Below are positions 3,772 to 24,573 of a stretch of DNA of 28,704 nucleotides, one piece after another. The DNA is taken from positions 1-28,704 of the IMG/VR virus record IMGVR_UViG_3300025070_003511, one strand, 5' to 3'. The notes below the pieces were generated by a model. That model was not told the origin of the DNA, did not search any database, and saw only the letters and a list, made by a program, of their open reading frames with translations. Source of the DNA: a virus. Every line of letters begins with the position of its first letter. The first letter of the stretch is position 1. A program made the translations under genes and the position numbers.

Positions 3772-6594
3772 TTAGTTGGTTTGACCCAATGTGTTTTGTA
3801 CACGAATCGGAATGTAAATAAACTCAACTGCTTTGACTGGCTGTATAGCAATGTCAATGTAAAGTTCATTTCTATCAATCCTTGCTGGTGTATTGTTTGA
3901 GCTATCACAAACTGTTACAAAGTCATATAGACCACGTTGTGATACAAGATTACCTAAGAATCTATCAACTAATACTTTAGCATTCTGACGTGTAATTTCA
4001 TCGTTTGGTTCAAATAAGAATGGCTTAACTATATCGTCAAGTCTTTCTCTGAGATAAACAACCAATCTAGCCACGTTAACTCTATCCAATGCACTTGCAG
4101 AACCTGAAAGAGTTTTTTGACCAAATATAGCAAGTCCTCTACCTGGGAACTGTGCTATTGGGTTGATTCTATTAATGTATAGACCATCTCTTTGACCTTC
4201 ACTTAGACTCACAGCCTTAAATTCGCCTGAATCTGGATCAATGTAACCTACGCCACTTGCATTACTTACAACACCACGTTGGAAACCAGCCGGTGCAAAC
4301 CATGGGAAAGCAACCTGGTCGTTAAACGCAATAGTTCTTAATGCAATGTGTGATGCTGGAACAACAATGTCATTACCTGCTAAGTCACTTGTTTTACCAT
4401 GTGGATAGTAAACAGCCGCATAATCAAAGTTTGAAACCAATCCATCTTCACCGTTTGAAGTAGCATTGTTTGCATTTGTTGCCCAAGCCGCTGTGCTTGT
4501 TGCGTCTGCTTTAAGTCTTAACGGAGCATCAGCAATAACAAATGCTGTTTCTTTTCTGTTTCCGCTTAAACTTACCATCTCATCCATAAGCTCTGGATAA
4601 CCAGGACATGCAATCAAGTTAAATCTATTAGACTCATTTCTGATATCTTGATTAGAATTAATTACTGCTTGTAATCCTTTAACAACTGCTCTTCTTTGTG
4701 CTTTTCTAAGCAAGTAAGGTGAACCGTCATCTTTATTACCACTGTAATCTACCCATCTGTTACCAATTAATGTATTACCTACTTTGTGAGCAAGAGTCCA
4801 TTGCTTGACGTTACCGCCTGAGAATCTCTTGTTCCATCCTAGGATATCATATGGATAAAGACTTGCTTGAGGAGCGTCTGCATCTAATGTTGCTGATCCA
4901 GGTGCTTCTCTGAAGTCTGCGAATACAATACCATCACCGCTGTCTTGATCTGAACTATCAACAAGTACCCAAGCACCGCTTGATCTCTTGTAAATACGTG
5001 GATAGTTTTCTAAGTCAGCACTGCTGATCCATAAATCGCCATCTACTAATGCACTTGTGCCATCTCTTTGTACACTTGGTTCACTAGCCGCAATGTTAAC
5101 ATCATATGGATAAGTAGCCCAAGTACCTGCATTGTTATATAAAATATCAATAGAGGAATTACTTACTGAACTATCGTACCATAATGTACCATTTGCTAAA
5201 CTACCTGTGATTTCATTTGCACTTGCAGTAAATGTAGGTATTTCCCAATTACTGTAATGAGCGTCAAATCCTAATTCTGTTAATGGGTTAAATCCATTAC
5301 CTAAAGAACCGTTTTGGATTCTAATATCTTTACCGCCGCTTACTGTAATTGCAATACGTCCTGCAACGTTAGCAACTGATAATAAGTCTGAACCTGTTTG
5401 AGCTGGAGTTGCAACACTAATAGCATCTTGGATACCTGTGATAACATCACTAAGTGTTAAGTTACCATCTGAATCGCTGTCTTTACCAAATAATGTAACA
5501 GGAATCACGCCGTTTACTGAACCGTTTACAACGTCGTTGTCGTTTACAACAATTTCAAATGCTGTAGAACCACTTACGTGTTGTGTTGCGGACCATGTTT
5601 GACCTGATAGTGATGCTGAAGTGTCAGCAACTAAGTTACTTGCACCATTGTGTCTCTTAATTGAGATGTTAGCAACTTCTTTGTCGTAATCAACCCAAAT
5701 ATCTCCTGCTTTTACAGAAGGATAAGCACCATATGCTTCATATGAATTAACTTTTCCAACAATATTTTCTGAAACAAATTGTCCTGCTGATGCGTCATAT
5801 CTTTTCAAAATAACATCTGAACCGTTATTTTGCTTTGATAGTTGTAGGAATAAGTCACCTACTGACAATGCACCACCGCCACTTTGAACAGTTGGAATAG
5901 TTGTGTGAGGACCAACTTGGAAATCATGTGAGCTTCCAAATGTGCCGTTGTTGTCAATTAACAACCATGCACTTGAAATCTTTTGATAAAGTTTAATGCC
6001 TGTTGTTACTGTTGCGCCTGTATTGCCTACAAAGACAACACAATATTGACCGTTTTGTCCAAATGATGTTAAAGGTACGTTAGAACCGTCAACGTCATTT
6101 GCACCAGGAATCAATACTGATTGTTTAACCCAGCCAGTACCTGCTCCGCCCCATCTCTTAAGACCCCAAACTGTGTCATCTGAATCTAACCAGTATGAAC
6201 CGTTTGATGGTTTTGCAGTTGGTGCCGCGGCACTTGGATTTAATGCGTCTAAATCAACATCCGCTCTTAGAACGTATGCTCTATTAGCGATGCCTAAAAA
6301 ACTATAAGCGGCTTGAAGACCGTATTCATTACGCTCGTCGCCGTGTAGAGGAGTTCCCCCTAATGTTTTGAAACTTGGATTACCATAGTTAGAAAGTAAT
6401 TCTCTTTGACTAGTGATAAGTTTTACGTTTCCTGCTACTGCATCCGTTGTAAACGCCGCAGTACCGCCTGCTGGTGAAGGCTTATCTTTGGCTGTTGCAA
6501 TAACAACTAAAGGCACCGTTCCTGTTCCAGCAGTAGCATAAAAACTTTCATTACTGAGTTCTATACTAACACCTGGTGATACTAATTCTGCCAT
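3772..6594 (-). CDS. 18: Contractile tail sheath protein (T4 gp18)
   Basis: 940 residues from the ATG at 6594 (MAELVSPGVSIELSN), chosen because GGGAG lies 6 nt upstream. The upstream extension in the same frame has no ribosome-binding site and crosses the promoter. The N-terminus (SPGVSIELSN...TVPLVVIATAK) and the C-terminal 230 residues (GLYINRINPIAQFPGRG, ARLVVYLRERLDD, FEPND, FVTVCDSSNN, AVEFIYIPIRVQ) are typical of phage sheath proteins. The protein is far longer than T4 gp18 (659). The extra length is in the middle, about residues 110-560, and contains repeated units of the form GDLWISS / GDIWVDYDK / GSYWLDSDD, which look like repeated small surface domains. The sheath surrounds the tube and contracts at infection. 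The gene has its own late promoter and terminator. Confidence 0.93.
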   Translation of the reverse strand: MAELVSPGVSIELSNESFYATAGTGTVPLVVIATAKDKPSPAGGTAAFTTDAVAGNVKLITSQRELLSNYGNPSFKTLGGTPLHGDERNEYGLQAAYSFLGIANRAYVLRADVDLDALNPSAAAPTAKPSNGSYWLDSDDTVWGLKRWGGAGTGWVKQSVLIPGANDVDGSNVPLTSFGQNGQYCVVFVGNTGATVTTGIKLYQKISSAWLLIDNNGTFGSSHDFQVGPHTTIPTVQSGGGALSVGDLFLQLSKQNNGSDVILKRYDASAGQFVSENIVGKVNSYEAYGAYPSVKAGDIWVDYDKEVANISIKRHNGASNLVADTSASLSGQTWSATQHVSGSTAFEIVVNDNDVVNGSVNGVIPVTLFGKDSDSDGNLTLSDVITGIQDAISVATPAQTGSDLLSVANVAGRIAITVSGGKDIRIQNGSLGNGFNPLTELGFDAHYSNWEIPTFTASANEITGSLANGTLWYDSSVSNSSIDILYNNAGTWATYPYDVNIAASEPSVQRDGTSALVDGDLWISSADLENYPRIYKRSSGAWVLVDSSDQDSGDGIVFADFREAPGSATLDADAPQASLYPYDILGWNKRFSGGNVKQWTLAHKVGNTLIGNRWVDYSGNKDDGSPYLLRKAQRRAVVKGLQAVINSNQDIRNESNRFNLIACPGYPELMDEMVSLSGNRKETAFVIADAPLRLKADATSTAAWATNANNATSNGEDGLVSNFDYAAVYYPHGKTSDLAGNDIVVPASHIALRTIAFNDQVAFPWFAPAGFQRGVVSNASGVGYIDPDSGEFKAVSLSEGQRDGLYINRINPIAQFPGRGLAIFGQKTLSGSASALDRVNVARLVVYLRERLDDIVKPFLFEPNDEITRQNAKVLVDRFLGNLVSQRGLYDFVTVCDSSNNTPARIDRNELYIDIAIQPVKAVEFIYIPIRVQNTLGQTN

Positions 6595-6629
6595 AATATT
6601 CTCCCAATTTAATGTTAAATGGTTATTAC

Positions 6630-6637
6630 TATTTATG
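6630..6637 (-). promoter_or_regulatory. T4-type late promoter box for gp18
   Basis: CATAAATA on the minus strand, 35 nt before the gp18 ATG. The resulting leader carries a GGGAG ribosome-binding site. A 10-bp tandem repeat lies just upstream. Confidence 0.7.
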
Positions 6638-6650
6638 AAAAATAGCAAAT

Positions 6651-11977: not shown

Positions 11978-12105
11978 CAGATAGAGCGTTCAAAATACTA
12001 GAACAAGGCAACCCCAAAGGTTGGTTTTGGTGTTCTGACAGACGTGATTACTACAGATATCATGACTGGATGGAAGGAACAGGAATAGGAAAAAATGGCA
12101 GGTAA
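11917..12105 (+). CDS. Small unknown protein overlapping lysozyme and gp15
   Basis: 62 codons that fill the otherwise empty 117 nt between lysozyme and gp15, with a 61-nt overlap with the end of lysozyme and an 11-nt overlap with the start of gp15. The part outside the overlap has a protein-like, aromatic-rich composition (GNPKGWFWCSDRRDYYRYH), which argues for real coding. No ribosome-binding site precedes the ATG and no other start is available in frame. No function can be proposed. Confidence 0.45.
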   Translation: MAQTSNKQSRETNGQARERITDRAFKILEQGNPKGWFWCSDRRDYYRYHDWMEGTGIGKNGR

Positions 12106-13447
12106 GAACCTAGATTATTGGTACGATGAACAGATAAAACGTTATCTAATTCAACTTGTCAGAATTTTCTCCAATTTCAAAGTTAGAGAAAACACTGATA
12201 AAGGTACCAACTATAATCGTGTGCCTGCAAGGTACGGCGACATTAGTAGAATGGTTGCACATATACTGCGTAACAATTCAGAGAACACAGTAAACAGTGC
12301 GCCAATGATAACTGTCAGCATTGGCAGTATAGCCGTTGCCAGAGAAAGAGCTCAAGACCCATACTTAATGGACACACAACAAGTTGCCGAAAGAGAATGG
12401 GACAGAGAAAACAATATGTATACAAGTGAGCAAGGAAACTTGTATACAACTAAAAGGTACATGCCAGTGCCATACAACTTATCTATTAATGTTGATATAT
12501 GGACAACTAATACTGATACTAAATTACAATTACTAGAACAAATTATGGTATTGTTTAATCCAAGTATTCAATTACAATCAAACAGCAATCCATTAGATTG
12601 GAGCAACGTGTTTGAAGTTGAAATGACTGACATAAACTTTAGCAGTAGAAGTCTTCCTGCAGGAGTAGACGAGCAACTTGATATAGCAACATTAACATTT
12701 GATGTTCCTATTTGGATCTCTCCTCCAGCAAAAGTACAAAGACAAAAGATTATACAAAAGATTATTGCTGATATACACAAAGTAAGTGACATAGATTCTC
12801 TAGGAATTACAGATGATTCATACTATGATTTCTTTGAGAACTTTGATGAAACAGGGCAAGTGGTAATAACTCCAAACGATTATAAACTACAAGTTGCAAA
12901 CGGTGGTGTAAAACTTATCACAATACAAGGCCAACCAGTTAAGTGGAATGACTTAATAGAAATGCAAGGCGAACTAAAAGCAACAAGCAGACTTGAATTA
13001 AATTTATCAAACGACATGGATGACATATCTCAATTAGTTATTGGTACTGTTGTTGCTAATCCACTTGATGAAACATCATTGATTTTTAATATAGACAGCG
13101 ACACATTGCCGTCGAATACACTCAGTGATATTACAAAAATTATTAATCCTCAATCATCTAGACCCAGTAACGGTTTAGACCCACAAGCATTAGGGCAAAG
13201 GTATTTGATTACAGAAAATATAGTGCCTACGTTTGCAGAATGGGGTAGTATTAATGCAAGTGCAAATGACATAATAGAGTACGACGGTAACCAATGGAGC
13301 ATAGTATTTGACAGTAGCAATGTTAGCGATCTTGCTTATGTAACTAATTCATATACTGATGCACAATACAAATGGACTAAAGCAACTGGCTGGATAAGTA
13401 GTTGGGAAGGTGAATACAACGGTGGTTACTGGAGACTTATTTTATGA
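12095..13447 (+). CDS. 15: Tail sheath stabiliser / tail terminator (T4 gp15)
   Basis: 450 residues. The N-terminal 230 residues match T4 gp15 (272 residues) along their length: YWYDEQIKRYLIQLVRIFSN, then a VP.RYGD segment, YNLSINVDIWTTNTD, LLEQIMVLFNP, VFEVEMTDINFSSRS and LTFDVPIWISPP, each with a T4 counterpart in order. The remaining 220 residues are a C-terminal extension with a WGSINASANDIIEYDG segment and a repeated Trp-rich end. gp15 caps the finished tail and provides the surface that binds the gp13/gp14 neck. The ATG has a good Shine-Dalgarno (AGGAA). The stop overlaps the Nudix start (ATGA). The order gp14-lysozyme-gp15 keeps the T4 neck order with an inserted lysozyme. Confidence 0.85.
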   Translation: MAGKNLDYWYDEQIKRYLIQLVRIFSNFKVRENTDKGTNYNRVPARYGDISRMVAHILRNNSENTVNSAPMITVSIGSIAVARERAQDPYLMDTQQVAEREWDRENNMYTSEQGNLYTTKRYMPVPYNLSINVDIWTTNTDTKLQLLEQIMVLFNPSIQLQSNSNPLDWSNVFEVEMTDINFSSRSLPAGVDEQLDIATLTFDVPIWISPPAKVQRQKIIQKIIADIHKVSDIDSLGITDDSYYDFFENFDETGQVVITPNDYKLQVANGGVKLITIQGQPVKWNDLIEMQGELKATSRLELNLSNDMDDISQLVIGTVVANPLDETSLIFNIDSDTLPSNTLSDITKIINPQSSRPSNGLDPQALGQRYLITENIVPTFAEWGSINASANDIIEYDGNQWSIVFDSSNVSDLAYVTNSYTDAQYKWTKATGWISSWEGEYNGGYWRLIL

Positions 13448-14758: not shown

Positions 14759-16816
14759 TTATTTGGTGGTTGCAATAAAGATACCGTTCCAATCAGCGGG
14801 GAGGTCCTGTGTTTTTTGATATTCGCAACGATCAATCCACATATCGTAGTAGCCTATCATTCTACCATCAAAATGTGTCTTTAACAATTCACACATTTTA
14901 ATTGCTTTATCAAAATTTTGATTTCTATAATGCTTATGCATATCGGCATGCATTTCTCTAGACTTAGCATGTTTGCTTGGCTTGTAATCAAGTACAGTGT
15001 AAATTTCTATGCCAACACTTTTACCTTTAACTGCCAAGTCATCTACTTTCAAATAAAAGAAATCATTTTTAGTTTTGTGATATGTGCTACCGCCTACCAA
15101 TAAGAGGCATCCATACTCTTTACACTTAGACTCAATTCGTGCGGCAGTTGATACAGCATCTCCAAGTACATCATAACTATGTCTGCTTGTAGAACCCATC
15201 TCACCGAGATAACCAACGCCAGTGTTAATGCCAGCCCCCATACCAATTGGAGGTCTTCCCTCTGCTGTGATCTTATCATTAAATTTCTCCACTGCTCTCA
15301 GCATATCCAAACCGGTTTGCACTGCTGAATGTTCATGCTTTGCATCGTCGTTTGGTGCATTGTGTATATGCATACTTGCATCACCTATGTACTTGATAAT
15401 CATACCGTCTGCATCAAGTACAGGTTGTGTGATAGCATCCATATATCCATTCATTAGTTTTGTGAGTCCTTGTACATCATCTCCAAAACTTTCACCTAAT
15501 GGTGTGAAGCCACGCAAGTCTGAGAAGCATATTGATATCTCTCGCTTCATGCCTTCTTTGATCAGTGCAGGATTTTCTTGTAGCATACGCACAACTGTGG
15601 GTGAACAATATCCTGCAAACTGCTTTTCTATTTCTTGTCTGAGTTTGAATTGTATCCAGAAGTTATTAAAACTTGCATGAGTAAAGATTAGGAATGCACT
15701 TATTGCTGGAAAAGTTGCATCAAATAAAACTAAATTTGCTGTGTAAGAATTTACACTGTAGTATACAATTCCGCCTATAATAGTAACCGTAGTTACCAGT
15801 CCTGCCCATATAGGCAACTTATATATTGCTAAAGCAATCAATACCATACTCAACAACGCACACAGAAGCTCTGTAAGCGACGATAATTCAGATCTGGTAA
15901 TGTTACTCCCGTCTATAAAATTCTGTAGCATGTGTGCTTGTATGTGCTGTGGTAGTATGTTGCCTCTCGGAGTGGGAACCGGATTAGCAACACCTTCTGC
16001 ACTTACTCCCACTATCACGAACTTTCCACCTAAGTCAGGCAGTTTACTCGCATCTGTATATTCGTATTCTTCAAATGTATTGTTGAAGCGAATATAGGCA
16101 GTTCCATCTGTCTGTGTAACTATGGGATCGAAAGGTGGTACTGCAAATTCTTGTACACCTATCTCTGATGTCTTTAACATATAACTTGGCTTTTGTGTAT
16201 ATGCTCTCAACATCTCAATAGCAAAAGAAGGATATATTTTACCCTCTACTCCAATTGCTAAAGGATATGTTCTTGTTTGATTATCTGGTTGTGGGGCACT
16301 TGCTATTACTCCTATACCGTCAGCCGACTGTTCGAGCTCTGAAATATTTATGACGAGATTTGGCCAACTTAGCAAGAAGTCTGTCGCTTTCGAAGGGCCT
16401 ATTGTGGCTGTGCCAATGTGAGGGCCTGAACTCCTCACCCCTTTGGCAGACGGGGTCTGGCTTAAAACGACTCCATTCTCGTTTATCCAACTCGATAAAA
16501 TCGGGTCGCCTCCAAACCTGTCCGGTTCCGAAAACATAATATTCAGCCCTATAATGCCCCCATTCATCGTTCTCAAATCGCTTATCAGTTGAGCAAAATT
16601 CTGTCTCGGCCATGGCCATTGTCCCCATTGTTGTAAGCTCTTTTCGCCTATGTTTATTACTACAACTTCGTCGCTTTGTTTAACTTCATCTAATTGTTGG
16701 TAGTAATCGAATGTCTGTGAACGCAGACTTTGAACTGGCGTAGGGTCAGCAACTCGTAATGCTGTCAGTAGTAATATAGATATTGCTACGGCATAGCCGC
16801 TGTACAACCATTTCAT
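14759..16816 (-). CDS. CHASE2-domain class III adenylate/guanylate cyclase
   Basis: 685 residues and apparently complete. An N-terminal membrane segment (about 4-21) precedes a CHASE2 sensor domain outside the cytoplasmic membrane (about 25-300; VVVINIGEKSL, WPWPR, DPILSSW). Three hydrophobic segments follow (about 315-385), then a class III cyclase domain (about 425-610) and a C-terminal helical tail ending DLPADWNGIF, usual for this family. Metal-binding residues are Asp433 (FSDLRGFT) and Asp479 (IGDA), the purine-recognising Lys is in IIKYIGD, and GDAV keeps an Asp expected for ATP. The catalytic Asn of the N-x3-R pair is Ser556 with Arg560 kept. The product would be cAMP (or cGMP) made in response to an extracytoplasmic signal. 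GATAAATA lies 5 nt before ATG. Part of the CHASE2 region is unusually GC-rich. Confidence 0.93.
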   Translation of the reverse strand: MKWLYSGYAVAISILLLTALRVADPTPVQSLRSQTFDYYQQLDEVKQSDEVVVINIGEKSLQQWGQWPWPRQNFAQLISDLRTMNGGIIGLNIMFSEPDRFGGDPILSSWINENGVVLSQTPSAKGVRSSGPHIGTATIGPSKATDFLLSWPNLVINISELEQSADGIGVIASAPQPDNQTRTYPLAIGVEGKIYPSFAIEMLRAYTQKPSYMLKTSEIGVQEFAVPPFDPIVTQTDGTAYIRFNNTFEEYEYTDASKLPDLGGKFVIVGVSAEGVANPVPTPRGNILPQHIQAHMLQNFIDGSNITRSELSSLTELLCALLSMVLIALAIYKLPIWAGLVTTVTIIGGIVYYSVNSYTANLVLFDATFPAISAFLIFTHASFNNFWIQFKLRQEIEKQFAGYCSPTVVRMLQENPALIKEGMKREISICFSDLRGFTPLGESFGDDVQGLTKLMNGYMDAITQPVLDADGMIIKYIGDASMHIHNAPNDDAKHEHSAVQTGLDMLRAVEKFNDKITAEGRPPIGMGAGINTGVGYLGEMGSTSRHSYDVLGDAVSTAARIESKCKEYGCLLLVGGSTYHKTKNDFFYLKVDDLAVKGKSVGIEIYTVLDYKPSKHAKSREMHADMHKHYRNQNFDKAIKMCELLKTHFDGRMIGYYDMWIDRCEYQKTQDLPADWNGIFIATTK

Positions 16817-16836: not shown

Positions 16837-17553
16837 TCAGTCAACAAAAGCACGTTCGAGCATGAAGTCTCCCATCTCACCTGTGTTGCCTTCTTGGAAA
16901 CCTAATTTAGAAAACATGTCTCTGCACTCTCTATTCAGGTCTGGCGAACCGCATACCATTACAGCATCTAACTCTTTACTAAGATTTCTATTCAGTGTAG
17001 GTTCAATGTGATTCCAAAATCTGCCTTGTCGAAAATATTTTTCTCTGGTAACAGAGGGTATGTATGTAAAAGGCATCATTCCTTCTATCTCATCTAATGA
17101 ATTTTTGTGTGTGATTTCTGCAACTTCTCTTACAGTATGAAACAGATACACATTTTCAAATCTACTATATGTCTCTGGATCTTTAGCAATGCTTAAAAAG
17201 GGTGCTATGCCGGTTCCAGTTGACAACATAATTAAATTTTGTTTTGGTGTAAGATAATCACATACTAGACTGCCTGTACACTTTGGCTTTAATAATATAT
17301 CGTTGCCTGGCTGTATGTGTTGTAATCTACTTGTTAATGGACCATCGGATACTTTAATACTGAGAAACTCTAGATAATCATCGTAACAAGTACTCACTAA
17401 ACTGTATGCTCTATAAATTGGACGTGGTTCAGCATCTAAACCAATCATAGCAAATTCGCCATTCTTGAATCTAAATGATTTATTTCTGGTAGTTTTGAAT
17501 GAGAAAAGTCGATCACTATAGTGATTTACTTCTAAGACTTTTTCTGTTAGCAT
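16837..17553 (-). CDS. fpr: Ferredoxin/flavodoxin-NADP+ reductase (bacterial Fpr type)
   Basis: 238 residues, slightly shorter than E. coli Fpr (248). RAYSL (residues 48-52) is the FAD-binding RxYS motif, STGTGIAPF (111-119) binds the NADP pyrophosphate, VCGSPDLN (near 200) is the NADP-binding CG motif, and the C-terminus GEMGDFMLERAFVD matches the proteobacterial type, which ends in an aromatic-containing FVE/FVD tail. It moves electrons between NADPH and ferredoxin or flavodoxin. In infection it could feed reductant to ribonucleotide reduction, Fe-S repair or oxidative defence. No ferredoxin gene is in the window. TATAAATA lies 5 nt before the ATG. It follows the membrane protein gene and precedes the cyclase. 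Confidence 0.9.
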   Translation of the reverse strand: MLTEKVLEVNHYSDRLFSFKTTRNKSFRFKNGEFAMIGLDAEPRPIYRAYSLVSTCYDDYLEFLSIKVSDGPLTSRLQHIQPGNDILLKPKCTGSLVCDYLTPKQNLIMLSTGTGIAPFLSIAKDPETYSRFENVYLFHTVREVAEITHKNSLDEIEGMMPFTYIPSVTREKYFRQGRFWNHIEPTLNRNLSKELDAVMVCGSPDLNRECRDMFSKLGFQEGNTGEMGDFMLERAFVD

Positions 17554-17571: not shown

Positions 17572-18087
17572 TTATCGCAGATTGCAACGTCTTTCGGCTT
17601 TACTGATAAGCCTAAAATTATTATTCACAACAAATCCACCTAGTAGCAAAGGTGCCACTAGTTCGGCTCTGGTAATGTTATCCCATCCTATTGCACTGTA
17701 TGTAGGAAACAAAATTACACCTTTTAATAATGCCATTTCACCTACTGTAGGTATTTCAGGCAATAATGGATTTGCTTCTTTAATACAATCATATTTTACA
17801 CCTTCATATGTACTGTATATGTCTGCTAGTTGCAAACCCCAAAACAACATCCACATCCAGTTGTCTGCAGGTTCACTCCAATAATTATTTGGAATATATG
17901 CTTCCATTAGGAATTCACGTTGTTCAGGCAATACAATTGGTGGAACACCATAAACTTGATCTATGACTTCTTGGCTGTAAGGGGCATGCCAGCCATTTTG
18001 TATACTATGTATTTGTAATGGCGTTAATTTAGCAGTTGCACTTAAAGAAAAAAGCGACAACAAAATAAATGCTATCGCTTTCAACAT
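17572..18087 (-). CDS. Secreted or membrane protein of unknown function
   Basis: 171 residues from the ATG at 18087, chosen because AGGAG lies 8 nt upstream. The N-terminus (MLKAIAFILLSLFSLSATA) is a signal peptide with likely cleavage after ATA. The mature part has Trp-rich WMWMLFWGLQLADIYSTYEG, then KEANPLLPEIPTVGEMALLKG and hydrophobic stretches around residues 115-130 and 140-155, suggesting an inner-membrane protein. The LADIYSTYEG...EANPLL pattern recalls the small DUF5658-like membrane families, a weak similarity from memory. It lies downstream of the lipoprotein gene and may share its transcript. Confidence 0.75.
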   Translation of the reverse strand: MLKAIAFILLSLFSLSATAKLTPLQIHSIQNGWHAPYSQEVIDQVYGVPPIVLPEQREFLMEAYIPNNYWSEPADNWMWMLFWGLQLADIYSTYEGVKYDCIKEANPLLPEIPTVGEMALLKGVILFPTYSAIGWDNITRAELVAPLLLGGFVVNNNFRLISKAERRCNLR

Positions 18088-18196
18088 TATTCGCACTCCT
18101 GAGGATTCTCGGTGCAATATTTTTTAATTTGCTGTATTAACATTTTAATATCACTCCCGTTAGTTGCCTTACTCTCTTTGCGAGGAGAGATCAGGC

Positions 18197-18463
18197 TTAG
18201 TCCTTTTTTGGGTCTTGAAGTTCGTCTGTTTGTTTATCGACTTCTGTTTCTACAGTTTCGATAACTCCACTTGCCGCTTCGGCCGCAGTGTTAGCAATAC
18301 TAGACGCATCTTCTAAAACTGCTTGACTTACAGTCGAAACAGCATTAACAGAACCGTCTATTACGCCTGTCGTGAACTCTTTTCCTCCTTCAATTACTGC
18401 ACCAACTGATGCACAACTTACAAAGAAGAACAGACCTGCGAACATAGAAAATATATTCTTCAT
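18197..18463 (-). CDS. Small lipoprotein
   Basis: 88 residues from the ATG at 18463, chosen by GGAGAAA 5 nt upstream. It begins MKNIFSMFAGLFFFVSCAS: a lipoprotein signal with Cys17 as the likely acylated residue. The mature chain is Ala/Val/Glu rich and probably one long amphipathic helix (VIDGSVNAVSTVSQAVLEDA) with a charged, acidic-basic end (DELQDPKKD). Layout resembles entericidin-type or Lpp-like small lipoproteins of the outer membrane, but no specific family match is claimed. It has its own late box and a structured leader, so it is probably controlled separately from the curli genes just upstream. Confidence 0.75.
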   Translation of the reverse strand: MKNIFSMFAGLFFFVSCASVGAVIEGGKEFTTGVIDGSVNAVSTVSQAVLEDASSIANTAAEAASGVIETVETEVDKQTDELQDPKKD

Positions 18464-18537: not shown

Positions 18538-18545
18538 TATTTATA
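18538..18545 (-). promoter_or_regulatory. T4-type late promoter box for the lipoprotein gene
   Basis: A perfect TATAAATA on the minus strand, about 75 nt upstream of the lipoprotein ATG and just after the 81-residue gene. The long leader contains the two inverted repeats. Confidence 0.65.
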
Positions 18546-18559
18546 CAATAACACATTCT

Positions 18560-18805
18560 TTATGCTGTGTAATAAGGGCCAACTTGCTTACATTGGAAAC
18601 TGATTGTGTAGCCTGGTTGTGCATATTCTTTATGTTCTAACCAGTAATCAAGCCCGTGTTGTTGCAAATGTCTATCATACTTAGGGTCAAACTTAAATGC
18701 AACACAATGCCAATCTTGAACAAATGTTCTGACTATTTTTGTATTAAGAATTTCGCCTGATGACGTACTTAGTATTAATACCAATGCGGCTTCTGTGTAG
18801 CCCAT
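18560..18805 (-). CDS. Small unknown protein at the end of the curli operon
   Basis: 81 residues starting MGYTEAALVLILSTSSGE. The start follows the stop of the upstream gene by one base, so it is coupled to it. A mildly hydrophobic N-terminus (residues 5-14) is too short to be a sure signal peptide. Two Cys (in DWHCVAF and ISFQCKQ) could form a disulphide if exported. The remainder (KFDPKYDRHLQQHGLDYWLEH) is charged and aromatic. Its place as last gene after the curlin, FecR and CsgG genes suggests a helper role, but nothing in the sequence shows which. Confidence 0.65.
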   Translation of the reverse strand: MGYTEAALVLILSTSSGEILNTKIVRTFVQDWHCVAFKFDPKYDRHLQQHGLDYWLEHKEYAQPGYTISFQCKQVGPYYTA

Positions 18806-18806
18806 G

Positions 18807-19097
18807 TCATGAAAACTTCTTTTGGAGCCATTTGAAAACGGCGTATATTGATAGTCCGTAAAAGGCTAACACACTCATTGGTAGTGCTATGTAGGCCAAT
18901 TCCCACGGACTGAGGAATAGTATTTCCCAGGTAAAGTTTGCAACGGCTTCTGCATCACCTAATGGTTGCAGTTCAAGCATTTCTGAATCCATTTCAACAC
19001 CTGCTTCTTCCATCATAACAATGAGTTCATCGTATGATTCAGTGTCTAAACAGATTTCAAATTCTTCTGGACAATTTCCGTCGCCGCCGTAATCCAT
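18807..19097 (-). CDS. Single-pass membrane protein with acidic N-terminal domain
   Basis: 96 residues. The first 60 are strongly acidic (MDYGGDGNCPEEFEICLD, then MMEEAGVEMDSEMLE) with two Cys (residues 9 and 16). Residues about 66-88 form one membrane segment (LAYIALPMSVLAFYGLSIYA), followed by a short basic end (KWLQKKFS). By the positive-inside rule the acidic domain would face the periplasm. Its ATG overlaps the stop of curlin-like 2 (TAATG), so it is made with that protein. It might anchor or chaperone a curli component in the inner membrane; this is inference from position only. Confidence 0.75.
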   Translation of the reverse strand: MDYGGDGNCPEEFEICLDTESYDELIVMMEEAGVEMDSEMLELQPLGDAEAVANFTWEILFLSPWELAYIALPMSVLAFYGLSIYAVFKWLQKKFS

Positions 19098-20200
19098 TAG
19101 TTGCTACCATTTACTGTTACTGAACACCCTGCTGTGTTATAACATACACCTGTTATACTATAACTACCTGCTTGACTTGTAACATTTTGTGTTAAGTTGA
19201 GGGTGTAAGCACCAGTGCCATATGTTAAATCTATGGCCGCTGTTGCGGCATTACTGCCTCGTTGATTAACATCAACACTATGTCCATCGCCATCTAACAC
19301 AATGTCTGCCCATTTGACACCACCGTTACCACGTTGATATAAATCCACAGTGTTACTATCACCGGTTATTTCTATGAAGCCATCGTGTCCTGCTTTGCCC
19401 ATTTGTGTATGGTCTACATTATTACTATCACCTGTAATGATATTTGCTAGGTGATGTCCTGCTCCGCCACTGCCTCTGTTGGTGTCTGTTTGATAACTTG
19501 CTAACACATTGTTATCTCCAGTCACTGTCCAGTATGCTTCATGGTCTCCTGTTTCGTCAACATCAGTTGTACCATCAGCATGTTTGCCTTGCCACACTTT
19601 GAGATTGTTACTGTCTGAATTAGAGCCTAATAAAACATAAACATGGTTGTCGTCTTGCCCGTTGCCCTGATAAGTATCTATGTTGTTGTAAGTGCCAGTA
19701 AATACTTCAAGGTAAGCATAATGACTGTCTCCTGCTTGATAAAGTTGAATAGCATTATTAGTGTGACTATTACTTCCACCTGCTTCTAACCAAGCATAGT
19801 TATTATCACCTATTACATCTGCTTGTAATGAAACTGAATTACCGTGAGCATCTAAAAATAAATCATTGGAATTACCGTCGATGTCTCCTCTTACATTTTG
19901 ACTACTACCACTTGACCAAAGGCCCACATCGTTAAGGTTGCCTACCATGTCAATGTCAAGACTTAAACTGGCACCATTTAGACTGGCGGCTCCAGTTAGT
20001 TGTAAATTTTTTACTGTGTTGCCGTAACCTTGTTGTAGAATATTGAGATCTAAGTTATTACCTGCTTGATTAATGAGGATAGTGTTATCCGCATTTGCTT
20101 TTGTAGGTATTAATAAAAACATGCCTAATATAATATACCCCAATACTAAAAGAGGGGTATCTTTTGGTTTCATGTTGTTTAGTTTTTTATCTATGTTCAT
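19097..20200 (-). CDS. Curlin-repeat secreted protein 2 (CsgA/CsgB-like)
   Basis: 367 residues. An N-terminal signal ends at KANA (residue 37). The mature protein opens with NTILINQAGNNLDL and ILQQGYGNTV, a motif shared with curlin-like 1. Repeats with the curlin pattern (N-x-hydrophobic-x-x-x-Q-x-G/N) follow: GDSNNVDHTQMG, GDSNTVDLYQRG, GHSVDVNQRG, GDNNVLASYQ and related units with a period of roughly 20-25 residues, giving a predicted beta-solenoid amyloid. It ends with a Cys pair (CYNTAGC). Asn, Gly, Gln, Asp and Ser dominate. It would be exported by the CsgG pore encoded upstream. AAGG precedes the ATG, and a late box within the upstream FecR gene (20228-20235) can drive it. It is much longer than E. 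coli CsgA (151). Confidence 0.87.
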   Translation of the reverse strand: MNIDKKLNNMKPKDTPLLVLGYIILGMFLLIPTKANADNTILINQAGNNLDLNILQQGYGNTVKNLQLTGAASLNGASLSLDIDMVGNLNDVGLWSSGSSQNVRGDIDGNSNDLFLDAHGNSVSLQADVIGDNNYAWLEAGGSNSHTNNAIQLYQAGDSHYAYLEVFTGTYNNIDTYQGNGQDDNHVYVLLGSNSDSNNLKVWQGKHADGTTDVDETGDHEAYWTVTGDNNVLASYQTDTNRGSGGAGHHLANIITGDSNNVDHTQMGKAGHDGFIEITGDSNTVDLYQRGNGGVKWADIVLDGDGHSVDVNQRGSNAATAAIDLTYGTGAYTLNLTQNVTSQAGSYSITGVCYNTAGCSVTVNGSN

Positions 20201-20201
20201 A

Positions 20202-21389
20202 TTAACCTTGTGACTGTCTTATGTATATATTTATGCTACTACAATCGTTAACACAAATAATGTTACTACGGTTTTCTATATCTGTTTCTATTCTTGCACT
20301 ACTGCCAATTGGAACCTTAACACTAATTTTACCATTAACATCTCTTAAAAACCAAATTTGTCCACCACTGTCTATAATAGTATTAAACTGTGTCTTAGGA
20401 TCAAATCCAGGATTGAGTGTTCCTGTGATAATATCTTTTCCCACACGTTCGCTTGATGCTGACAAACGGTCTTTGCCTAATTCATCTACATCTTCTATTA
20501 ATTCTAGTAAATCCTGTAAAAAATCTACTCCCAAATAATCAATGTCTAGTTCAGTAAATTCTAATGAAACATCGTCTGAGTTATCATCTAATAAATTTTC
20601 TTCTAAAAAATCTACATCTAAATCATTAAATGCAAGATAATCTATGCCTCGTTTTTCTGCTTGTTGTTGTTCTTCTGCTTCTGTTATTTGTACTGGTTCA
20701 CTTACAATAAACATATTGTCTATTTGATTAATATCTAAGTTTGTTAATGTAACTGGCCTAGTAGGCTCTTGTTCAAATGTTGTAACCATAACTGCTTGAT
20801 ATGCTTCTGTTAGAAATACTTGGCCGCCATCATTAGTAACACTTATACTGCCTGAAGGTTTACATCCTTCTTCAAGTTTAACTCTATCGTTGCAGTTTTC
20901 GTCTGGTAACAGTATAACAAGGCTCCTACCTAACTCGTCTACTGTTGTTGTAAAATCTGTACCCCTAACGCCAATAGTGGCAGTGGGTGTTTGTATTTGA
21001 ATATTTTCTCTTGGTACTAATCCTAATCCACCTGTGGCAAATCTTGCTGTGCCTTGTGCAAAATTTAATGCCATTCTGCTTTTACTTGGATTGGGATCGT
21101 AGACATACTCGTTAATTTCTATTAACGTATGCTCAGTCATACTGACTTGTGTCTCGTCTATAAACTGTATCTTTAGCCTACCATTTGTTGTTTCAACGTT
21201 ATCCATACTAACAATGCCAGTATCAATTGTTGCTGAAAGTTGTTCACCGGTAGTACGTTCTATACTGCCCGGTGAACCGCTTTGTTCAAAAATGTCGCCG
21301 ATAGACTCTCCGGCTACAAATGGTGCCGAAAACAGAAGAGCTACGAGTACACTAATCTTTTTGTGTAATCGTAACTGTTGCGTTTTCAC
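20202..21389 (-). CDS. FecR-domain periplasmic protein
   Basis: 395 residues. A signal peptide (KKISVLVALLFSAPFVAG, cleaved near residue 27) is followed by a FecR domain: IQFIDETQVSMTEHT and IEINEYVYDP (residues 75-99), then TPTATIGVRGTDF (134-146), its signature. The middle (about 235-310) is very acidic. The C-terminus has a Cys pair (CVNDC) followed by a strand SSINIYIRQ. There is no membrane segment, so it should be periplasmic or exported. In bacteria FecR proteins often sit next to CHASE2-cyclase genes, and one lies downstream here. The start is GTG at 21389: a stop lies 3 nt upstream in frame and no ATG exists before the signal peptide. It overlaps curlin-like 1 by 38 nt. Confidence 0.88.
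   Translation of the reverse strand: MKTQQLRLHKKISVLVALLFSAPFVAGESIGDIFEQSGSPGSIERTTGEQLSATIDTGIVSMDNVETTNGRLKIQFIDETQVSMTEHTLIEINEYVYDPNPSKSRMALNFAQGTARFATGGLGLVPRENIQIQTPTATIGVRGTDFTTTVDELGRSLVILLPDENCNDRVKLEEGCKPSGSISVTNDGGQVFLTEAYQAVMVTTFEQEPTRPVTLTNLDINQIDNMFIVSEPVQITEAEEQQQAEKRGIDYLAFNDLDVDFLEENLLDDNSDDVSLEFTELDIDYLGVDFLQDLLELIEDVDELGKDRLSASSERVGKDIITGTLNPGFDPKTQFNTIIDSGGQIWFLRDVNGKISVKVPIGSSARIETDIENRSNIICVNDCSSINIYIRQSQG
20228..20235 (-). promoter_or_regulatory. T4-type late promoter box inside the FecR gene, ahead of curlin-like 2
   Basis: CATAAATA on the minus strand, within the last codons of the FecR gene (SINIYIRQ) and 27 nt before the curlin-like 2 ATG, with an AAGG ribosome-binding site in between. 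It would give curlin-like 2 extra late expression. Because it is also coding, chance is possible. Confidence 0.5.
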
Positions 21390-22071
21390 TGTCTATATTC
21401 AAATCCATATGACTATAACATGATGATGTACCTGTTGGGCAAGTACCAGAACTTTGAATTAAATCAAAGTCGCCGCCACTACCGTCGTGTACTACTTTCA
21501 TGTATTGATATGTTCCATCAGTTTGACTAGTAACAAAGTTGTTGCTATCGCCTGTAATATCAAAATTCCAAGTAGAATCATCTACTTCAATATCGATATC
21601 CCACACATTGCTGTCACCAAGTATTGTTAGGTCAAAGTCCAATCTTTCTGCACTTGCCGCACTACCTAGGTCAAAATCAAATGTGTTTGAGTCGCCTGTA
21701 ACATCTACTAGGATATCACCAGAATCTGCAGATCCTGTACTACCTATTAAAATATCCCACACGTTGCTGTCGCCAGTAAAAGTCCAGTCGTATGTACTGC
21801 TGTCTGCAGTAATTGCACCAAAAAACTTATTACTATTACCAACTTGGTCGAGGTTTATATTTAATGATGAGCCATTGATATCTAAATCAGATCCTTGTGT
21901 TGAATCACCTGATATTTTGTTACCATAACCTTGTTGTAAAATGACTAATGTTAATGTATCACCTGCTTGGTCAAGCAAGATCTCATTATCTGTTGCACTT
22001 TGTGACAATGCAACTCCACTAAACATTAAACCTGCTGTCATAACTAATGCTGACAATTTATTCTTCAACAT
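21352..22071 (-). CDS. Curlin-repeat secreted protein 1 (CsgA/CsgB-like)
   Basis: 239 residues from the ATG at 22071, chosen by a perfect AGGAGG 6 nt upstream, which is encoded in the last codons of csgG. The signal peptide runs to about residue 24 (LVMTAGLMFSGVALS). The mature part starts with EILLDQAGDTL and ILQQGYGNKI, shared with curlin-like 2. Then come repeats of GDSN followed by hydrophobic/aromatic residues: GDSNVWDI twice, GDSNTFDF and GDSNNF, spaced about 20-35 residues and rich in Asp and Trp, predicted as a beta-solenoid. The C-terminus has the Cys pair CPTGTSSC. It overlaps csgG by 14 nt and the FecR gene by 38 nt. It is probably an amyloid-type substrate of CsgG. Confidence 0.87.
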   Translation of the reverse strand: MLKNKLSALVMTAGLMFSGVALSQSATDNEILLDQAGDTLTLVILQQGYGNKISGDSTQGSDLDINGSSLNINLDQVGNSNKFFGAITADSSTYDWTFTGDSNVWDILIGSTGSADSGDILVDVTGDSNTFDFDLGSAASAERLDFDLTILGDSNVWDIDIEVDDSTWNFDITGDSNNFVTSQTDGTYQYMKVVHDGSGGDFDLIQSSGTCPTGTSSCYSHMDLNIDSENATVTITQKD

Positions 22072-23077
22072 TGTTTCCTCCTGAGTTTGTAGTATCGTTG
22101 AGATCAATCAAGTCAATGTTTTCAATATTTTCAATGAAAACCTCATCTTTAATTTCCCAATATCCTCTCTGATCGCCTTGTTCTATGAGAGCAAGAACTG
22201 CCGCTTCTACTGCACTTCTTACTGCCCAAGTAACACTTTCATTTGAGGTGATACCTGTTTCTAACTCTAATAATTTTGTATCCATATCAAGGAAACGAAA
22301 AACGTCTCCTCCCATGCCTACACTCAAAATTGTCTTGTATGTCTGTACATTGAGAATAATTTCGCCGGTAAGTACGCTCACTGCTCTAAGACTAATTACT
22401 ATACTATCTCGTCTATATTGTGAACTACCACCAATACCTAAGTACCTTGCTCCATTACCTCCTGTTTCTATGTTGCTGTCATAACCTACTATACCACCTT
22501 CAAGTAAAATTCCTGCAAACAACATAGGTTGTAAATCAGGTGCCTCACCGCCGGCTTTTCTAACATCATCTCTTGTACTTCGAATAATCTGCCTTTCTCG
22601 TACAAGATTGTCAAGACCCAGACCTCTTTCCACGACTCGAAACCAAGTACCGTTACCAGTATCTTTGGCTCCTGCCGCCTTAAGAGCATCTATTAATAAT
22701 GCTTTTGCCCCTTGCGTTACCGCTGTAGAAAATAAAGCAATATTATCACGTTGCTTTCGCTGACCGGTTAAATCAGCAAACTCATACACAGCAACCACTG
22801 GCATAATTTCTGCTGGTGGAAGTTGTCTGAGCTTCGCGTATGTTGGGAGTTCAACTTGCCCTGGCTCTTCAATGCACTCCATGGCCGAGTCCCAACACCA
22901 CTCTCCCGTAAGGGAATTCTGTGGTAATGCTAAAGATGCACATCCTGTAAAAAGTAAACACATTGCTGTAATACATGCAATTTTCGTGCCCCTTTTTACT
23001 GCGTCTTTAACACCCGTAAACGCATCATAAAAATTTAAGTGTGGGATTTCCCACACTGATCGACTATTGTTAGCCAC
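22058..23077 (-). CDS. csgG: Curli secretion channel CsgG
   Basis: 339 residues against 277 in E. coli. The match covers the whole chain: VYEFADLTGQRK, FSTAVTQGAKALLIDALK, FRVVERGLGLDNLVRERQII, ILLEGGIVGYDSN, GGNGARYLGIGGSSQYRRD, VLTGEIILNVQTYKTILS, VFRFLD and ETGITSNESVTWAVRSAVE all have direct CsgG counterparts. A lipobox-like FTGC46 gives the outer-membrane lipid anchor. CsgG forms the nonameric pore that exports curli subunits. The start is GTG at 23077 overlapping the csgF stop; an in-frame ATG at codon 39 would remove most of the signal peptide. The region before the signal is unusually long (about 32 residues) and contains a hairpin (23038-23057). Confidence 0.96.
   Translation of the reverse strand: MANNSRSVWEIPHLNFYDAFTGVKDAVKRGTKIACITAMCLLFTGCASLALPQNSLTGEWCWDSAMECIEEPGQVELPTYAKLRQLPPAEIMPVVAVYEFADLTGQRKQRDNIALFSTAVTQGAKALLIDALKAAGAKDTGNGTWFRVVERGLGLDNLVRERQIIRSTRDDVRKAGGEAPDLQPMLFAGILLEGGIVGYDSNIETGGNGARYLGIGGSSQYRRDSIVISLRAVSVLTGEIILNVQTYKTILSVGMGGDVFRFLDMDTKLLELETGITSNESVTWAVRSAVEAAVLALIEQGDQRGYWEIKDEVFIENIENIDLIDLNDTTNSGGNNVEE
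23038..23057 (-). promoter_or_regulatory. Perfect inverted repeat with U-rich tract in the csgG start region
   Basis: AGTGTGGGA and TCCCACACT are 9-bp arms separated by 2 nt; as RNA they form an 8-bp GC-rich stem with a 4-nt loop, and on the transcribed strand are followed by TTAAATTTTT. It lies inside codons 7-14 of csgG. It looks like an attenuator or terminator placed between the upstream csgF part and the csgG part of the operon. Confidence 0.6.
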
Positions 23078-23609
23078 CGATTGCTACTCCTACTGGAATA
23101 TCAATAGTGGTTGTCGAACCTTCTGCGTCTACTATTGTTAATCTAATTATTTCTATACCATCTTCACCCATAAGTCTTTCATACGTTACAGTGTTACCTT
23201 CGATGGTAAAGATGCCGTAATCGGCACCCTCTTCATTACCAAACATCTGATCTACTAATTGTCTAGATATCTGACTATAAATTCTGCTTTCTAAGTTTCT
23301 CAAAAACTTGTTTAATGTTGAGTTTTCTTCTTCACGTTGCTGACGTAATAGTTCTGCCTCAATATCATCTCTAATTTTGTCCTTGCGACTTTTTTGTTGA
23401 TTCTCAATAGTTAAATAATGTGCGCCTGTGCCAACGCCGCTAAAACTTGGATTCTTAAATTTATGAACTAGTTCATCGGCTAATGCCAACGGACTCATAA
23501 CCAACAATCCTAATAAAACACCAAACGAGAATGCTTTGAATAAATCACTTCCGGACCAAATACGTGGACCAATTTGTTTTTTTAATAACTCATAATCTTT
23601 ACTGTTCAT
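23070..23609 (-). CDS. csgF: Curli accessory protein CsgF
   Basis: 179 residues. A signal anchor ends at LALA44. The mature start DELVHKFKNPSFSG aligns position by position with mature E. coli CsgF (GTMTFQFRNPNFGG), the part that inserts into the CsgG pore. A helical middle (residues 75-130, LRQQREEENSTLNKFLRNLESRIYSQI in part) and a C-terminal strand region with GADYGIFTIEG and LTIVDAEGSTTTIDIPV complete the family layout. CsgF sits at the cell surface on the CsgG channel and helps nucleate curli. An n-region of about 24 residues precedes the hydrophobic core of the signal, longer than usual. AAGGAG precedes the ATG, which overlaps the stop of the upstream gene. Confidence 0.92.
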   Translation of the reverse strand: MNSKDYELLKKQIGPRIWSGSDLFKAFSFGVLLGLLVMSPLALADELVHKFKNPSFSGVGTGAHYLTIENQQKSRKDKIRDDIEAELLRQQREEENSTLNKFLRNLESRIYSQISRQLVDQMFGNEEGADYGIFTIEGNTVTYERLMGEDGIEIIRLTIVDAEGSTTTIDIPVGVAIGG

Positions 23610-23907
23610 TGTCTGTCTCCTTGTGCTTTTTTAGAGTGTCTTGATCTTTTGCGTCTTTGACAAGTTGCTCTTTAGCACGGTACTCTAATACAACATTAAC
23701 TTTTTGTTGTAACCTAATTAAATCCTGATCTAACATTCTTGTTTGATCTATAACTCTTATTAATGCCATATGCATTTCTTCAAGTTGTGGATTAATGTGT
23801 TCTCCTATAAACCACCAAACATAATATATAAAGTAACCTAGTCCAACCATCATGACTATGGGAAAGCCATAATCATTAATCAGAGAGGACACACTGGAAA
23901 TTTCCAT
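23599..23907 (-). CDS. Single-pass membrane/coiled-coil protein 2
   Basis: 102 residues. One membrane segment near the N-terminus (about 14-34; FPIVMMVGLGYFIYYVWWFI) is followed by a long charged helix (about 40-90) that probably forms a coiled coil, ending in a basic-acidic tail. The layout and several positions match the other small membrane protein of this operon at 24134-24430 (both have L-I-x-x-x-G-x-P-I, then G-x-F-I, and end with V-x-x-x-L-E-x-R), so the two look like diverged paralogues. Possible roles are a holin-like or scaffold function or an inner-membrane partner of curli export; the sequence does not decide. It is preceded by GGGAG, overlaps the AbrB-like gene stop (TAATG) and overlaps csgF. 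Confidence 0.75.
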   Translation of the reverse strand: MEISSVSSLINDYGFPIVMMVGLGYFIYYVWWFIGEHINPQLEEMHMALIRVIDQTRMLDQDLIRLQQKVNVVLEYRAKEQLVKDAKDQDTLKKHKETDNEQ

Positions 23908-24134
23908 TATGACTCCCGTGGATTTATATGAGTAATATCCAGTAAATTAACTTTTTTTAATGTTACCTCTTGGGTAACAGGGTCTACAAATGACATAAAG
24001 CCATCGCCGGGCTTAATATTGAGATACTTAGCCTCTAGTTCTGGAATAGTTATGGACTCATCTTTCTTGAGATGAATATAATATTCCGCAAATACCATTG
24101 CGATATCGCTATTGTTTGGTTTAATGCTTTGCAT
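23907..24134 (-). CDS. Small AbrB/MazE-like protein (putative DNA-binding)
   Basis: 75 residues. The second half (residues 28-62) reads ITIPELEAKYLNIKPGDGF then EVTLKKV, which follows the swapped-hairpin AbrB pattern (strand-IPxEhxxxhxIKPGDxh-strand-hxLKKV) used by AbrB and MazE-type DNA-binding proteins. The first half (NSDIAMVFAEYYIHLKKDES) would supply the opening strand. If correct it could be a small regulator of the curli operon in which it lies, but this rests on a motif pattern seen by eye. It is preceded by AGGAGAG and is linked by TAATG overlaps to the genes on both sides, so it is strictly co-translated with the two membrane/coiled-coil proteins. Confidence 0.6.
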   Translation of the reverse strand: MQSIKPNNSDIAMVFAEYYIHLKKDESITIPELEAKYLNIKPGDGFMSFVDPVTQEVTLKKVNLLDITHINPRES

Positions 24135-24430
24135 TAATCTCTCCTCGCATCTAATTTACCGTCTTCAATAAAATTTTCTGCTCGGGCAACTCTGTCTATG
24201 TCTGGTCTTAACTCTAATGCACTGCTTACTAACAAATCAATTTTCATCATCTCGTTACTCATAGTACGAGCACGATTTTCAAGACTGTTGCAAAAAATAG
24301 TTAGTGTTTTGATTTCTTCTACTATGCCTTGTAAAATTTGTTTGATTACAAGAAAGATAAAGAATCCCATTACAATACTACCAGCAATGGGGGCACCAAC
24401 CTCTGCTATTAAGTTAAAAATTTCATTCAT
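24134..24430 (-). CDS. Single-pass membrane/coiled-coil protein 1, first gene of the curli operon
   Basis: 98 residues from the ATG at 24430, chosen because AGGTGG lies 8 nt upstream; a GTG 12 nt earlier is an alternative. One N-terminal membrane segment (about 12-35; GSIVMGFFIFLVI) is followed by a long helix (about 40-85) with coiled-coil character. It resembles the gene at 23599-23907 in size, order and several aligned residues. It opens the operon after a late box at 24525-24532. Its function is unknown; the position ahead of csgF and csgG suggests an inner-membrane component for the same system. Confidence 0.75.
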   Translation of the reverse strand: MNEIFNLIAEVGAPIAGSIVMGFFIFLVIKQILQGIVEEIKTLTIFCNSLENRARTMSNEMMKIDLLVSSALELRPDIDRVARAENFIEDGKLDARRD

Positions 24431-24524
24431 ACGTGTAGCCACCTATTTGTTTCTGTTTATGGTGTTTATAAGTGTATGTGTCTCGGATAGAATTTTATTG
24501 TTCTAATTTATACCTACCCACATG

Positions 24525-24532
24525 TATTTATC
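24525..24532 (-). promoter_or_regulatory. T4-type late promoter box for the curli operon
   Basis: GATAAATA on the minus strand, 12 nt after the fibre-gene terminator and 94 nt before the ATG of the first operon gene, giving a leader of about 90 nt. It puts the curli-like genes under late control. Confidence 0.65.
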
Positions 24533-24543
24533 AGTTTAGCCAT

Positions 24544-24573
24544 AAAAAAACCTAGCACCGAAGTGCTAGGTTT
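24544..24573 (-). terminator. Strong intrinsic terminator after the fibre gene
   Basis: On the minus strand AAACCTAGCAC, a TTCG tetraloop and GTGCTAGGTTT form an 11-bp stem followed by a run of T. C(UUCG)G is a very stable loop. It lies about 30 nt after the fibre gene stop and isolates that gene from the curli operon. Confidence 0.9.

What the first reader, a model, noticed from the sequence alone, without database searches (positions are those of the whole stretch)
18560..24532. Ten-gene curli-like secretion operon on a phage
CsgF and CsgG are unmistakable, with two curlin-repeat exported proteins, a FecR protein, two membrane/coiled-coil proteins, an AbrB-like protein and two small proteins in one tightly overlapped operon behind a late promoter. 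CsgE, CsgC and CsgD are absent here. Curli-related clusters have been reported in pelagimyophages without a known function. A late-made amyloid at the surface of an infected cell could block superinfection, hold progeny or cells together, or turn the CsgG pore to lysis. The presence of both pore and substrates argues for real secretion.
Basis: partly seen in the sequence, partly recalled or inferred. Interest (0 to 1): 0.88.

Follow-up and report, generated by a model that had tools for sequence, protein, structure and literature searches.

The report
Curli-type fibre module on jumbo phage
A marine giant phage carries a late-switched set of genes for building and exporting sticky curli-like amyloid fibres from the cell it infects, a module already reported in smaller SAR11 and OM43 phages and found here to be under strong purifying selection and to come with two unexplained membrane proteins seen only in phages.

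Summary
Window 18560-24532 (minus strand) encodes CsgF, CsgG, two exported curlin-repeat proteins and an exported FecR-domain protein, plus five small genes, behind a T4-type late promoter conserved in all 23 close relatives examined.

Phage curli modules are already published for pelagimyophages, OM43 phage Melnitz, HTVC023P-type podophages and one marine T4-like virus, so the kind is not new.

- The phage belongs to a jumbo myophage lineage (PA5oct/CBB/Atu_ph07-related; relatives on 217-340 kb contigs). I found no curli report for that lineage.
- All six module families are under purifying selection, with little gene loss.
- A paired single-TM/coiled-coil family was seen only beside phage CsgF/CsgG. 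It has no kinase domain, although the published module puts a 'histidine kinase' at that position.
- FecR has a signal peptide, a curlin-like last strand and a match to an adhesin-anchoring domain; FecR followed by CHASE2 recurs in bacteria.
- A Hyphomonas operon (CsgF-CsgG-curlin-FecR-cyclase) is the closest bacterial counterpart found.

Best reading: a working late curli-type display system. Its benefit to the phage is not determined.

The parts
24548..24573 (.). Hairpin terminator separating the upstream fibre-like gene (ends 24606) from the operon
   Evidence: 11-pair stem, scored on both strands
24525..24532 (-). T4-type late promoter motif GATAAATA of the curli operon
   Evidence: Conserved upstream of the first gene in 23/23 loci of the window's clade, 150/211 overall, 3.9% of random stretches
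24134..24442 (-). CC1: single-TM coiled-coil protein (phrog_18771), start GTG 24442 or ATG 24430
23907..24134 (-).
   Evidence: No Pfam/PHROG/NCBIfam match
23599..23907 (-). CC2: single-TM coiled-coil paralogue of CC1 (phrog_18771)
   Evidence: hhalign of the two families E 2e-16
23070..23609 (-). CsgF
   Evidence: PF10614 4.4e-17; N-terminal FxNPxF motif aligns with E. coli CsgF
22058..23077 (-). CsgG, lipoprotein outer-membrane pore
   Evidence: PF03783 1.7e-47; family profile matches PDB CsgG at 3e-71; invariant lipobox Cys
21352..22071 (-). Curlin-like protein 1 (ATG start at 22071; a TTG start at 22107 is also open)
   Evidence: Profile to PDB curlin 8c50 5e-5 and CsgA 0.005; all-beta AlphaFold2 model, pLDDT 87
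20202..21389 (-). Exported FecR-domain protein with C-terminal beta domain ending in a curlin-like strand
   Evidence: PF04773 1.5e-11
19097..20200 (-). Curlin-like protein 2
   Evidence: PF07012 1.8e-7; profile to PDB 8c50 5e-9
18807..19097 (-). Small protein with C-terminal TM segment; relatives seen in L002, L026 and, by eye, L225
18560..18805 (-). Small 81-aa protein, seen only in the window and its near copy L002
18538..18545 (-). Second late-type promoter motif TATAAATA, start of the next unit
   Evidence: Exact match; its conservation was not tested
18197..18463 (-). Small lipoprotein (ATG at 18463), shared by the window's clade
   Evidence: 14 loci
17572..18117 (-). Exported DUF5658-like protein; in many relatives it follows the cyclase
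   Evidence: PF18902 2e-5
14759..16816 (-). CHASE2 plus class III nucleotide cyclase, regular member of the module
   Evidence: PF05226 1.2e-38, PF00211 1.5e-16

Best explanation
This is a phage-adapted curli-type (type VIII) secretion and fibre-display module, switched on late in infection from the phage's own late promoter. CsgG forms the outer-membrane pore and CsgF caps it. Two Sec-exported curlin-repeat proteins pass through as fibre subunits. The exported FecR-domain protein, whose last strand looks like a curlin half-repeat, is more likely a periplasmic or surface anchor of the fibre and partner of the CHASE2-cyclase than a transcription regulator. Two coiled-coil membrane proteins form an inner-membrane pair seen only in phage versions. 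The infected cell would carry adhesive fibres; sticking infected cells, debris and neighbours together near lysis is the most likely benefit. Shown here: gene identities, conserved late promoter, purifying selection, co-occurrence, phage lineage. Inferred: secretion, fibre formation, FecR anchoring, cyclase signalling and the benefit.
For: CsgG, CsgF, curlins and FecR identified. Late promoter conserved. dN/dS medians 0.085-0.186 for all six families, none at or above 1. In 76 loci with full surroundings no CsgF, CsgG or FecR is missing. CsgF keeps the N-terminal FxNPxF motif. Second curlin of other phages carries PA14 caps in 4 of 16, as expected of an adhesin tip. FecR ends in IxIxQ in 116/116 unique proteins versus 34/3506 other ORFs and matches an adhesin anchoring domain (5ix9, 4e-4).
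Against: No CsgE detected. Several window curlin repeats lack the usual glutamine. The predicted curlin 1 fold has no significant PDB match. PMC9004378 saw no clumping of Melnitz-infected cells in culture. No secretion or fibre has been observed for any phage system in the papers read. Conservation of the FecR end is among homologues, not independent events.
Confidence: 0.6

Rival explanations
1. Superinfection exclusion: the late fibres coat the infected cell and block adsorption of competing phages; any aggregation is a side effect.
For: Same gene evidence as the best explanation. Proposed in PMC9599517.
Against: Exclusion is usually wanted early, whereas the promoter is of the late type. 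Exchangeable caps on curlin 2 are not needed for a plain shield.
Confidence: 0.2
2. Lysis pore: CsgG, with CsgF, serves as a gated outer-membrane pore that helps time or complete lysis; the curlins are not secreted as fibres.
For: Proposed for Melnitz in PMC9004378. Late promoter. The coiled-coil pair has weak holin (phrog_4898, E about 0.03) and YvrJ (0.025) matches.
Against: Curlins, CsgF and FecR are all retained under purifying selection, which a bare pore does not explain. CsgG acts in the outer membrane. PMC9004378 called the fibre genes missing, but the deposited Melnitz record has two curlin-repeat proteins and a FecR protein next to csgG.
Confidence: 0.1
3. Signalling module: FecR and the CHASE2-cyclase sense secretion or envelope state and raise a cyclic nucleotide in the infected cell; the fibre part is secondary.
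For: FecR directly followed by a CHASE2 protein recurs in bacteria, 7 of 30 FecR loci in the sampled order. Metal-binding and other cyclase residues are kept across phages. By fold the FecR domain resembles the PupR signalling domain.
Against: No sigma-factor gene was seen among the window proteins scanned. Expression already has a phage late promoter. One typical transition-state residue position differs between the two cyclase types.
Confidence: 0.2
4. Uptake: the unplugged CsgG pore lets scarce nutrients or cofactors into the infected cell.
For: No CsgE plug detected. Proposed in PMC7029224 and PMC9599517.
Against: Does not explain conserved curlins and CsgF; a late promoter is poorly timed for import.
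Confidence: 0.05

Closest known systems
Phage T8SS module of HTVC023P-type pelagipodophages and pelagimyophages (PMC9599517, PMC7029224)
   Same: CsgF, CsgG, curlin, FecR, curlin, cyclase in the same order; no CsgE. In HTVC008M two coiled-coil genes precede CsgF as here.
   Different: The window phage is of a jumbo lineage. Here the cyclase sits in a second unit after inserted genes. The literature calls the gene(s) before CsgF histidine kinase; no kinase domain is found in the proteins at that place here.
Methylophilales phage Melnitz curli operon (PMC9004378)
   Same: CC pair, CsgF, CsgG, curlin, FecR, curlin, cyclase
   Different: CsgG 41% identical to the window's. Melnitz is a smaller Kyanoviridae phage of OM43. 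The paper reads it as a pore without fibre genes.
Curli genes in a T4-like virus assigned to marine Bacteroidetes (PMC7198788)
   Same: Three curli genes annotated together on a marine T4-like genome
   Different: Its sequence was not compared here; host assignment and full module not described in the passage read
Hyphomonas sp. TMED17 curli operon (L226)
   Same: CsgF-CsgG-curlin-FecR-CHASE2 cyclase in the same order
   Different: Bacterial contig of 705 kb, no CC pair, a single curlin gene; long branch in the CsgG tree
E. coli csgBAC/csgDEFG
   Same: CsgG, CsgF N-terminal motif and curlin repeats
   Different: CsgE not detected; FecR, cyclase and the CC pair are additional
Caulobacter holdfast anchor protein HfaB
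   Same: CsgG-family protein (NCBIfam HfaB match 5e-7)
   Different: Match far weaker than to CsgG (5e-52); HfaA and HfaD were not searched for

Membership tests
Type VIII secretion (curli) system | CsgG outer-membrane lipoprotein pore | tested here: met
   PF03783 1.7e-47; PDB CsgG 3e-71 by profile; invariant lipobox Cys
Type VIII secretion (curli) system | CsgF | tested here: met
   PF10614 4.4e-17; N-terminal motif conserved
Type VIII secretion (curli) system | Exported curlin-repeat subunits | tested here: met
   PF07012 for curlin 2; profiles of both families to PDB curlins; signal-peptide-like N-termini read by eye
Type VIII secretion (curli) system | CsgE periplasmic gate | tested here: not met
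   PF10627 not found in eight records, E. coli control positive. PMC9599517 states that Alphaproteobacteria also lack CsgC, CsgD and CsgE, so its absence does not exclude membership
Type VIII secretion (curli) system | CsgG-dependent export and amyloid fibres | not testable with these tools
   Needs an experiment
Pelagiphage-type phage T8SS module | Order CsgF-CsgG-curlin-FecR-curlin with a cyclase | tested here: met
   in the window the cyclase is separated from the second curlin by inserted genes
Pelagiphage-type phage T8SS module | Histidine kinase gene(s) in front of CsgF (as labelled in PMC9599517) | tested here: not met
   The two proteins there are about 100 aa, one TM plus coiled coil, no kinase domain in 41 members. 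Whether these equal the published genes is inferred from position and number; those sequences were not read
FecR anti-sigma regulator (FecR/PupR type) | FecR domain | tested here: met
   PF04773 1.5e-11; fold match to PupR 6ovk 5e-5
FecR anti-sigma regulator (FecR/PupR type) | Cytoplasmic anti-sigma domain and partner sigma factor | tested here: not met
   The protein begins with a signal-peptide helix followed directly by the FecR domain; no sigma factor among the window proteins scanned
Pelagimyophage (HTVC008M-like) | Structural proteins closest to HTVC008M or cyanomyophages | tested here: not met
   Full-length sheath matches are jumbo phages; pelagimyophage-type contigs match only in part
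Holin (YvrJ/BhlA type) for the CC pair | Significant match to a holin family | tested here: inconclusive
   Only weak hits: PHROG holin E about 0.03, YvrJ 0.025 in 2 of 20 members

The most novel reading that the evidence does not exclude
Phages have turned curli into a distinct fibre machine. A phage-specific inner-membrane coiled-coil pair runs or gates secretion where CsgE is lacking. FecR, ending in a curlin strand, anchors and seeds the fibre in the role of CsgB. Exchangeable caps on the second curlin choose what the infected cell sticks to. The machine has spread across several marine phage lineages, jumbo phages included.
Probability: 0.25. Interest if true: 0.8.

Novelty: new member of a known kind. 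Interest (0 to 1): 0.52.

Why it matters
If the module works, some marine phages make their host build an adhesive amyloid coat late in infection, which would bear on aggregation, gene exchange and phage competition in the open ocean. Finding it in a jumbo-phage lineage widens its known spread. The conserved coiled-coil pair and the FecR-CHASE2 pair give concrete genes to test in place of 'function unclear', and the 'histidine kinase' label in the literature needs checking.

Tried and rejected
Megablast of window 1-24000 against phage records: no match. Rfam and tRNA scans: nothing. Late promoter by motif count in the window alone: not significant, so conservation across loci was used instead. 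PADLOC: only Pycsar-cyclase matches to the cyclase catalytic domain; not read as defence because no effector was found and the enzyme is a CHASE2 fusion. Fold search of curlin 1 in PDB: no significant match; in viral models it finds curlin-associated phage proteins. GxxN repeat count against shuffles: 6 versus 1.5 expected for curlin 1, but no clear excess for curlin 2 (9 versus 5.6), so not used. Genome MW574966 was opened to read its 'histidine kinase', but no curli gene is annotated in the 45 of 59.8 kb viewed. Spanin reading of the CC pair: not favoured, because the positive-inside rule puts the coiled coil in the cytoplasm in 271 of 278 proteins. MAG contigs carrying the CC pair (L220-L225, L227, L228, L240) were treated as phage: L221 and L225 show phage genes by eye, the others are presumed.
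Full report
Observation. The operon is real. Ten minus-strand ORFs between 18560 and 24442 overlap or nearly touch. Five carry firm assignments: CsgF, CsgG, two curlin-like proteins and FecR. A hairpin terminator (24548-24573) separates the operon from an upstream fibre-like gene, and GATAAATA follows at 24525. The motif is too common in the window to mean anything by itself. It stands, however, upstream of the first operon gene in 23 of 23 loci of the window's clade and in 150 of 211 loci overall, against 3.9% of random stretches. As far as sequence can show, the operon is under phage late control.

Boundaries. The next unit begins with TATAAATA at 18538. It holds a lipoprotein, a DUF5658-like exported protein, a reductase-like protein and a CHASE2-cyclase at 14759-16816.

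Which phage. The window is a 28.7-kb IMG/VR record. Its 958-aa tail sheath matches jumbo phages PA5oct, Paride and MIJ3 at 43% over 98% of its length, then CBB and SNUABM_47. Its sheath-stabiliser-like protein matches Phosso, PA5oct and Atu_ph07 best. Among curli-bearing contigs, those of 250 kb (L020), 217 kb (L164) and 340 kb (L166) have sheaths 54-58% identical over nearly full length; the other contigs with a sheath match do so only in part, at 34-44%. In the CsgG tree the window groups with those large contigs (SH-aLRT 98, quick tree). The comparison with pelagimyophages therefore needs amending. The papers searched hold no report of curli in jumbo phages, which is not proof of absence.

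Is it kept? dN/dS between independent pairs of relatives is low for every module family (medians: CC 0.085, CsgF 0.133, CsgG 0.141, curlins 0.186, FecR 0.134, cyclase 0.144; none at or above 1). Most of the highest values come from pairs below about 50% identity, where a Nei-Gojobori estimate is unreliable. In 76 distinct loci with room on both sides, CsgF, CsgG and FecR are never missing; one lacks a CC gene, two lack one curlin and five lack a detected cyclase, some perhaps only because the fetched stretch ends.

The coiled-coil pair. The two 102-aa proteins are paralogues (hhalign E 2e-16), each with one TM segment and a coiled coil that charge bias places in the cytoplasm (271 of 278 proteins). 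Searching the viral collection with their own profiles gave 135 new loci. In 132 of these CsgF or CsgG is present; in the other three the held sequence ends at or just after the CC genes. Each search kept only its 80 best hits, and some loci overlap, so distant members are under-sampled and the loci are not all independent. No match was found in 385 genomes of the Hyphomonas class, though without a positive control, and none in the clearly bacterial curli loci. No kinase domain appears in 41 members. PMC9599517 reports a histidine kinase, 'sometimes two', in front of CsgF; position and number suggest these are the same genes, but I could not read those sequences.

FecR and cyclase. FecR here begins with a signal-peptide helix and ends, in 116 of 116 unique proteins, in an IxIxQ-type strand like that at the end of curlins, against 34 of 3506 other ORFs. 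These are homologues, so the count shows conservation, not repeated origin. The AlphaFold2 model has a FecR domain and a separate C-terminal beta domain joined by a low-confidence linker (pLDDT 80). By sequence the FecR domain matches the cell-surface anchoring domain of an ice-binding adhesin (5ix9, 4e-4); by fold it resembles the PupR signalling domain. FecR followed by a CHASE2 protein on the same strand recurs in 7 of 30 FecR loci sampled. One bacterial operon, in Hyphomonas sp. TMED17, has CsgF-CsgG-curlin-FecR-CHASE2 cyclase in that order, which differs from the statement in PMC9599517 that the cyclase is not within bacterial T8SS operons. Whether that operon is donor or recipient is open, because its branch is long.

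Curlin 2 caps. In 4 of 16 phages sampled the second curlin begins with a PA14 domain; in others a different globular start is visible by eye. In the window it is repeats throughout. Such exchange fits a ligand-binding tip.

Mechanism and verdict. The simplest reading is a late-made curli-type secretion and display system. Whether the gain is aggregation near lysis, exclusion of rivals or something else is not settled by sequence; Melnitz-infected cells did not clump in culture (PMC9004378). The lysis-pore and uptake ideas explain fewer of the conserved genes. The system is a new member of a known kind, with the jumbo lineage, the coiled-coil pair and the FecR reading as the added points.

Noticed in passing
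window 3772-6648 and 12095-13447: Tail sheath and sheath-stabiliser-like protein place the phage with jumbo myophages (PA5oct, CBB, Atu_ph07, Phosso), not with pelagimyophages.
   Followed up: yes
L226:9486-15509: Hyphomonas sp. TMED17 has a CsgF-CsgG-curlin-FecR-CHASE2 cyclase operon and is the only bacterium on the viral side of the CsgG tree.
   Followed up: partly
L306, L309, L315, L320, L327, L329, L332: FecR directly followed by a CHASE2 protein recurs in bacteria; in six of these seven short loci no curli gene was seen.
   Followed up: partly
L043, L046, L056, L057, L074, L082: Second curlin carries different N-terminal domains: PA14-like in some, another globular start in others.
   Followed up: partly
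alignment A5 (window 14759-16816 and relatives): The CHASE2 cyclases carry two types of catalytic domain (YDVLGDAVS and YSVIGDAVN motifs) behind homologous CHASE2 domains, as if exchanged.
   Followed up: no
window 16837-17553: Flavin/NAD-binding reductase-like protein (PF00175 7e-9) next to the cyclase.
   Followed up: no
L056, L057, L063, L075, L081: In these loci CC genes lie on the opposite strand to CsgG, in L056 together with the cyclase, so the pair can be its own transcription unit.
   Followed up: no
L220-L225, L227, L228, L240: Contigs binned as Bacteroidota, Rhodobacteraceae or Synechococcus MAGs carry the phage version of the module; probably phage contigs in MAG bins.
   Followed up: partly
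OR851715.1 (hit H7): A 1.5-kb unannotated record named Salmonella phage S.Kent 1-2-1 holds a CsgG-like frame; probably host DNA.
   Followed up: no
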